64,000 nucleotides of DNA from Latrodectus hesperus (Eukaryota > Arthropoda > Arachnida > Araneae > Theridiidae), in the NCBI GenBank assembly GCA_037975125.1, contig CM075855.1:84829392-84893391 (forward strand), given 5' to 3'. Shown one piece after another: positions 1,139-62,296 of the stretch. Under the pieces are notes generated by a model. The model ran no database searches, had not been told where the DNA came from, and saw nothing but the letters and a program-made list of their open reading frames with translations. The translations under genes and the position numbers were made by a program. The stretch's first letter is position 1; each line of letters begins with the position of its first letter.

Positions 1139-1237
1139 ATCAGCAACATTGAAAATCACATGGCCATACATCAACAATCCTCCCATTTGAAAATAATTAA
1201 TTCGTGGCCTTGGCTGGATCTCAGGTAATTTGTCACC
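1139..1237 (-). CDS. Exon 25, last exon in the window
   Basis: Residues ~800-832, GDKLPEIQPRPRINYF then QMGGLLMYGHVIFNVAD. The acceptor is AATATCCTAG and the donor GTAAGT, so the gene continues to the left of base 1. No further exon was recognised in 1-1138. Confidence 0.86.

Positions 1238-62296: not shown

What the first reader, a model, noticed from the sequence alone, without database searches (positions are those of the whole stretch)
1139..62296. A 25-exon animal gene for a PEP-synthase-like enzyme
PEP synthase-type PPDK_N is standard in bacteria, archaea and plants but not in core animal metabolism. Here it is a spliced gene of at least 60 kb with intact motifs (GGKGSSLG, AVRSSATGED, GQMETFLGV, CWAS, TCDPLTGNP, YGLGESVVSG, DIEW, QSRP). 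Intact motifs across many small exons argue for a working, long-resident gene, possibly of bacterial origin. Substrate unknown: pyruvate, or a small molecule as in rifampicin phosphotransferase.
Basis: partly seen in the sequence, partly recalled or inferred. Interest (0 to 1): 0.75.

Follow-up and report, generated by a model that had tools for sequence, protein, structure and literature searches.

The report
Kinase-lyase fusion enzyme in a spider
This long spider gene encodes an animal enzyme that probably puts phosphate on oily small molecules using ATP, joined to a second part that looks like a bacterial steroid-phosphate-removing enzyme whose active site seems to have worn away in arthropods; in bacteria the two parts are neighbouring separate genes.

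Summary
The gene is real, but it is not a PEP synthase. It lies on the minus strand of a 109.7-Mb contig: 23 coding exons mapped in the window, 16 more beyond its start, to a stop codon; the first exon is not located. The protein (~1,310 aa) belongs to a widespread animal family (spiders, ticks, insects, molluscs, sea urchins, amphioxus, sharks). The C-terminal ~900 aa are a rifampin-phosphotransferase-type dikinase: the residues I saw reported as critical in Listeria RPH are present, and the PEP-synthase barrel domain is absent. The N-terminal ~400 aa are kin of a bacterial protein related to 25-phosphosteroid lyase. In bacteria this is a separate gene near an RPH-like dikinase gene (54 of 80 loci; 0 of the 12 RPH-type ones). 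Animals have both in one chain. Predicted ancestral function: ATP-dependent dehydration of an alcohol (phosphorylate, then eliminate phosphate). Named non-arthropods keep the lyase Asp (21 of 22, one gapped); no named arthropod does (0 of 72). So the spider enzyme is best read as a membrane-anchored, AMP-forming kinase for a hydrophobic alcohol with a non-catalytic lyase-fold domain, one of at least 9 copies in this genome. Substrate unknown; nothing was assayed.

The parts
   Evidence: one of the higher phase-1 donor scores among short ATG frames in the region; resembles MGA/MGS starts of homologues; hydrophobicity weak
55028..55212 (-). first mapped coding exon (P0001 residues ~22-83): basic stretch after the expected N-terminal anchor; local alignment begins at 55216
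   Evidence: spliced alignment; acceptor seen
54103..54359 (-). exon 2, residues 84-168, lyase-like domain
   Evidence: 60% identity
46653..46712 (-). exon 3, residues 169-188
43187..43297 (-). exon 4, residues 189-225
42906..43024 (-). exon 5, residues 226-265; carries RIRYL(G) (split with exon 6) where bacteria and non-arthropod animals have RDH(S/T)(F/Y)G
41527..41585 (-). exon 6, residues 266-285 (short, alignment only)
41354..41406 (-). exon 7, residues 286-301 (short, alignment only)
41124..41239 (-). exon 8, residues 302-342
37004..37136 (-). exon 9, residues 343-387, end of lyase-like domain
33227..33288 (-). exon 10, residues 388-408, linker (alignment only)
31409..31521 (-). exon 11, residues 409-446, GGKGSSLG (Lys22 of RPH)
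30421..30524 (-). exon 12, residues 447-480
27382..27423 (-). exon 13, residues 481-494 (short, alignment only)
27178..27305 (-). exon 14, residues 495-537, AVRSSAT (Arg117 of RPH)
27005..27075 (-). exon 15, residues 538-561, GQMETFLGV (Thr136 of RPH)
20406..20470 (-). exon 16, residues 562-582, CWAS
19052..19199 (-). exon 17, residues 583-632, TCDPLTGNP
17056..17173 (-). exon 18, residues 633-670
13948..14048 (-). exon 19, residues 671-704
11233..11304 (-). exon 20, residues 705-728, DIEW
10051..10157 (-). exon 21, residues 729-763, SRPVTS; end of ATP-grasp domain
1415..1487 (-). exon 22, residues 764-788, start of substrate-binding region
1139..1237 (-). exon 23, residues 789-822; 16 further exons lie beyond the window start (contig C6:84828362 down to 84795780, then stop TAA), with QRRETTK and catalytic GGLISHG

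Best explanation
The gene encodes a two-part animal enzyme. Part 2 (residues ~410-1313) is an RPH-type small-molecule dikinase. ATP-grasp charges a swivelling histidine with the beta-phosphate of ATP (products AMP and Pi), and the histidine passes the phosphate to a hydroxyl of a hydrophobic substrate held by the middle domain. Part 1 (residues ~20-400) descends from a bacterial phospholyase of the 25-phosphosteroid-lyase kind. In bacteria, and probably in the ancestral animal protein, the two together dehydrate an alcohol at the cost of ATP: phosphorylate, then eliminate phosphate to give an alkene. A two-bond ATP cost would make formation of a high-energy tertiary phosphoester irreversible. 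In arthropods, including this spider, the lyase site is lost but the fold kept, so the enzyme probably stops at the phosphorylated product and the N-terminal domain binds or presents substrate. A hydrophobic N-terminus typical of the family (its exon is not located here) would anchor it to a membrane with the catalytic parts in the cytosol. Most likely roles: inactivation of a steroid, terpenoid or xenobiotic alcohol. SHOWN here by sequence or model: gene structure, domain homologies, conserved kinase residues, lost lyase residues, bacterial gene pairing. INFERRED: both activities, substrate class, membrane topology, role.
Confidence: 0.6

Rival explanations
1. The N-terminal domain is a hydratase or isomerase-like AttH/CrtC-fold enzyme, not a phospholyase; the dikinase acts on its product.
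For: Fold scores to AttH 2ich, kievitone hydratase 7a0q and pericyclases are about as high as or higher than to 25-PSL.
Against: Only 25-PSL is found by sequence profile, with the shared QxG...RDxSxG and GxGxxE motifs; and a kinase partner next door suits a phospholyase.
Confidence: 0.2
2. An animal pyruvate,water dikinase (PEP synthase) for gluconeogenesis, as some database names say.
For: Names given by sources; PPDK_N and mobile-domain homology.
Against: No PF02896 barrel, His at C-terminus, RPH-type Arg-Glu pair invariant, RPH does not use pyruvate (passages).
Confidence: 0.04
3. In arthropods the protein is still bifunctional, the lyase using other residues (Arg/Lys pairs).
For: R/K at position 204 in 65 of 65 chelicerate and myriapod rows and R/K at 206 in 65 of 65: a conserved basic pair; fold kept.
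Against: Asp gone in 72 of 72, Arg211 and Glu330 in 69 of 72 each.
Confidence: 0.2
4. Decaying or silent gene.
For: 88.8-kb gene with LINEs in introns; no transcript checked here.
Against: 39 open exons with splice sites; dN 0.08-0.16 against dS of 1.1 or more in the six defined pairs of one exon; kinase residues kept.
Confidence: 0.05

Closest known systems
Rifampin phosphotransferase RPH-Lm (PDB 5hv1, 5fbs)
   Same: ATP-grasp, middle substrate domain, C-terminal His swivel domain; critical residues kept
   Different: N-terminal lyase-like domain and hydrophobic anchor; about 33% identity in the ATP-grasp part; outside the RPH-type group in the core tree
25-phosphosteroid lyase of the anaerobic sterol pathway (PDB 9fzn, 9g2i, 9g4c) and the Rv3169 family
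   Same: fold; sequence kinship via bacterial partner proteins; motif RDxSxG in non-arthropod animals
   Different: fused to a kinase; the motif Asp, Arg211 and Glu330 absent in this spider; the kinase in Sterolibacterium is a different, ADP-forming enzyme (PMC8449060, abstract and passages)
HpeHI, two-component dikinase (PDB 9goj)
   Same: RPH-like small-molecule dikinase in catabolism (passages of PMC12167813)
   Different: phenolic substrates; split between ATP-grasp and swivel parts; no lyase-like part in the passages read
PEP synthase
   Same: ATP-grasp and phosphohistidine domains
   Different: domain order and pyruvate barrel absent

Membership tests
PEP synthase (pyruvate,water dikinase) | C-terminal PEP-utilizers barrel PF02896 | tested here: not met
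   absent from P0001 and four other animal proteins at E <= 0.1; present in P0179-P0183 (precomputed)
PEP synthase (pyruvate,water dikinase) | pyruvate as substrate | not testable with these tools
   needs assay
RPH-type small-molecule dikinase | order ATP-grasp, substrate domain, C-terminal His domain | tested here: met
RPH-type small-molecule dikinase | Lys22, Arg117, Thr136, Arg666-Glu667, His825 | tested here: met
Rifampin phosphotransferase proper | clusters with RPH-type sequences | tested here: inconclusive
   core tree separates animals from the RPH group at 100*; ATP-grasp-only tree cannot reject union (AU 0.119)
Rifampin phosphotransferase proper | NCBIfam equivalog cut-off | tested here: not met
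   NF041857 341.8 bits against cut-off 999 for P0001
25-phosphosteroid lyase / Rv3169 family (N-terminal domain) | AttH/CrtC-like double-barrel fold of 25-PSL | tested here: met
25-phosphosteroid lyase / Rv3169 family (N-terminal domain) | Asp of the RDxSxG motif | tested here: not met
   Ile in the window; 0 of 72 named arthropods
25-phosphosteroid lyase / Rv3169 family (N-terminal domain) | phosphate elimination | not testable with these tools
   needs assay
25-phosphosteroid lyase / Rv3169 family (N-terminal domain) | NCBIfam Rv3169 cut-off 150 bits | tested here: not met
   P0118 30.5 bits, E 1.9e-7; not among the 25 best rows shown for P0001; 16 of 18 non-arthropod animals match at E <= 0.001, best E 1.2e-9

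The most novel reading that the evidence does not exclude
Bilaterian animals carry a bacterial-type ATP-dependent dehydratase in one chain: an AMP-forming dikinase phosphorylates a tertiary alcohol (for example on a sterol or terpenoid side chain) and a fused phospholyase eliminates phosphate to an alkene, a route I know of from no animal. In arthropods the lyase half died, turning the enzyme into a membrane-bound phosphorylating enzyme for hormones or toxins that then multiplied in spiders.
Probability: 0.4. Interest if true: 0.85.

Novelty: new variant of a known kind. Interest (0 to 1): 0.7.

Why it matters
A large animal gene family is carried in databases under the names PEP synthase, PigC, YvkC or rifampicin phosphotransferase. 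The bacterial gene pair and the animal fusion give it a testable reaction: ATP-driven dehydration. If right, animals would have an alkene-forming step for hydrophobic alcohols outside the standard pathways, and arthropods a kinase that could inactivate steroids or toxins. Non-arthropod and arthropod members give a natural test pair, with and without the lyase residues.

Tried and rejected
Considered and rejected: bacterial contamination (109.7-Mb contig, introns); PEP synthase; a fragment (the rest of the gene was found beyond the window). I first took Pfam PF27448 for the N-terminal domain; one search shows it in bacterial RPH-like proteins without that domain, so it is probably the middle domain. 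An unnamed protein P0167 looked like a non-animal fused form; its closest named relative is the annelid Dimorphilus, so I make no claim from it. Neighbour-gene content was weak evidence: Bacteroidota-type loci gave a tyrosine-phosphatase family in 6 of 77 neighbour ORFs; actinobacterial and myxococcal loci gave luciferase-like monooxygenase in 8 of 97, 97 being the ones I sent of 138 listed; neighbours of RPH-type loci (56 listed) were not scanned, so there is no control. A phylum sample found the pair only in the seed genome (1 of 198), so it is patchy. First-exon search was inconclusive. Rfam at gathering thresholds: nothing. Literature: ten searches brought no paper on this animal family's function; the tick expression paper and a 2006 flesh-fly abstract naming a PEP synthase (one passage) were the nearest, and a bdelloid rotifer paper was seen as a listing only. 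The library lacks most subscription journals, and no paper describing the 25-PSL structures was found. Models from AlphaFold and matches from Foldseek are predictions. dN/dS: of 36 pairs of one exon 22 gave dN < dS; I did not separate the other 14 into undefined and reversed; for a second exon (residues 84-170) dS was undefined in both pairs with the window (dN 0.36).

Full report
WHAT IS THERE. A draft of the exons retrieved spider proteins of ~1,310 aa, best P0001 of Parasteatoda tepidariorum, named 'rifampicin phosphotransferase' (1,661 proteins at E <= 0.001 among 7,980 scored candidates, best 120 listed). A splice-aware alignment of the whole minus strand to a profile of 14 spider homologues placed 23 coding exons between 55216 and 1136, the last trimmed to its donor at 1139 when more sequence was added; they cover P0001 residues 21-822. 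Identity to P0001 is 57% over 805 positions. The window is contig C6:84829392-84893391 of a 1.64-Gb assembly, on a 109.7-Mb contig. Six adjacent 10-kb slices gave the other 16 exons, ending at residue 1313 and a TAA, 33.6 kb beyond the window start. The 39 mapped exons span about 88.8 kb; the first exon is not located.

COPIES AND CONSTRAINT. In the same genome the PPDK_N exon matches at 9 places. With P0001 as query there are 36 matches (35 of 160 candidates scored, so a lower bound): by my count N-domain exons (residues ~83-171) at 10 places and the PPDK_N exon at 9. Four copies stand head to tail on C6 within about 0.4 Mb, and another cluster is on C8. For exon residues 583-632, window against 8 copies: dN 0.079-0.156; dS 1.13-3.18 in the six pairs where it was defined, undefined in two. 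For exon residues 84-170 against two copies dS was undefined.

THE OTHER HALF. The N-terminal ~400 residues match Pfam only weakly: DUF7064 at 2.4e-05 in the nemertean P0118, nothing in four arthropods. Three bacterial loci from a genome scan matched this part too (L025, L056, L057), where it proved to be a separate ~340-aa gene directly before a ~800-aa dikinase gene. An HMM of the N-domain, built from 20 animals and those three bacterial proteins, hits 30 of 80 at E < 1e-5, all on the dikinase strand, 29 upstream, gaps -174 to 129 nt. An Rv3169-like relative (E < 1e-6) is present in 24 more, same strand, 23 of them within 1 kb and one 4.1 kb away. None of 12 RPH-type loci (those with the motif GGxMTHGAVVAREYG) has either; 14 further loci have none found, some on short contigs. 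As a check that starts from the other gene, 8 of 393 genomes of one order hold the lyase-like gene, and in 8 of 8 the dikinase follows at once; at least two of the eight were already among the 80.

WHAT 25-PSL DOES. In Sterolibacterium, 25-hydroxysteroids are dehydrated at the cost of ATP: a kinase makes the 25-phosphoester and a lyase eliminates phosphate to the 24-alkene (PMC7411048, abstract and one section; PMC8449060, abstract and passages; PMC11061730, passages). There the kinase is a different, ADP-forming enzyme with an equilibrium constant near or below one, because a tertiary phosphoester is about as energy-rich as ATP. A dikinase, spending two bonds, would push the same step to completion; this is my inference. 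The two deposited 25-PSL sequences differ at the motif Asp: the entry with phosphate and alkene (9g4c) has Asn, which suggests that the Asp is catalytic.

ORIGIN. In a core tree (85 rows, 48 of the 80 loci, quick method) the 23 animal rows form one group with one unnamed protein (P0167, possibly an animal). Animals plus the Bacteroidota, actinobacterial and myxococcal dikinases part from the rest, which holds the RPH-type group, at 100 (SH-aLRT); the ten RPH-type loci used fall in one starred group. Against a clean picture, the Lokiarchaeal dikinase, which has a lyase-like neighbour, lies on the RPH side, on a long branch. An ATP-grasp tree rooted on PEP synthases groups animals at 100/100, but unites them with the paired enzymes only at 82/91, and does not reject animals with RPH (AU p 0.119). 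An N-domain tree rooted on Rv3169-like proteins puts animals (94/94) beside the bacterial partners (100/100 against the root group); it warns of long branches. The simplest history is one early acquisition of a neighbouring gene pair and fusion, followed by vertical descent. The donor and date are open. No tetrapod, teleost, fly or nematode was among the named hits (66 in all); that is not a test of absence.

WHERE IT MIGHT SIT. The first ~60 residues hold a strongly hydrophobic stretch in 79 of 98 full-length relatives, against 9 of 98 for residues ~61-417 by the same measure. In most of the N-termini printed basic residues follow it. With ATP needed, this suggests a membrane anchor facing the cytosol. 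A tick 'phosphoenolpyruvate synthase' transcript was 451-fold higher in partially fed than in engorged ticks and was mainly in the fat body-trachea complex (PMC5099782, passages); I did not verify that it is this family. Some relatives come from ~4-kb contigs just large enough for the protein, which look like transcripts; none is known to be of this gene.

VERDICT. The protein is a new member of an animal family whose kinase half is of the RPH kind and whose N-terminal half is a relic, or in other animals probably a working copy, of a bacterial phospholyase. Interest lies in the fusion and the loss of the lyase residues in arthropods.

Noticed in passing
window 21547-26440 (-): LINE-like element inside the intron between exons 15 and 16: endonuclease, reverse transcriptase and RNase H domains.
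   Followed up: partly
window 47597-49558 and 56674-58667 (-): Two more reverse-transcriptase stretches, one in the intron between exons 2 and 3, one upstream of the first mapped exon.
   Followed up: partly
contig C6 84.80-85.25 Mb and C8 26.85-27.08 Mb of the window's genome: Tandem clusters of paralogues, same strand within each cluster; at least nine copies genome-wide.
   Followed up: partly
L012, L018, L035 and other actinobacterial loci: Dikinase and a close 25-PSL/Rv3169-type relative stand near each other, and luciferase-like monooxygenase genes occur among the neighbours scanned (8 of 97 ORFs, loci not resolved): a possible unstudied catabolic gene set.
   Followed up: partly
neighbours of the pair in Bacteroidota-type loci: A tyrosine-phosphatase-family (PF13350) gene in 6 of 77 neighbour ORFs.
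   Followed up: no
L032 (Lokiarchaeota): An RPH-like dikinase followed by a DUF7065/7064 protein, gene order reversed relative to the bacterial pairs.
   Followed up: no
window 18833-18950 (-): A short stretch beside exon 17 reading 'GSTVRGFESHLGHG', possibly a dispersed repeat.
   Followed up: no
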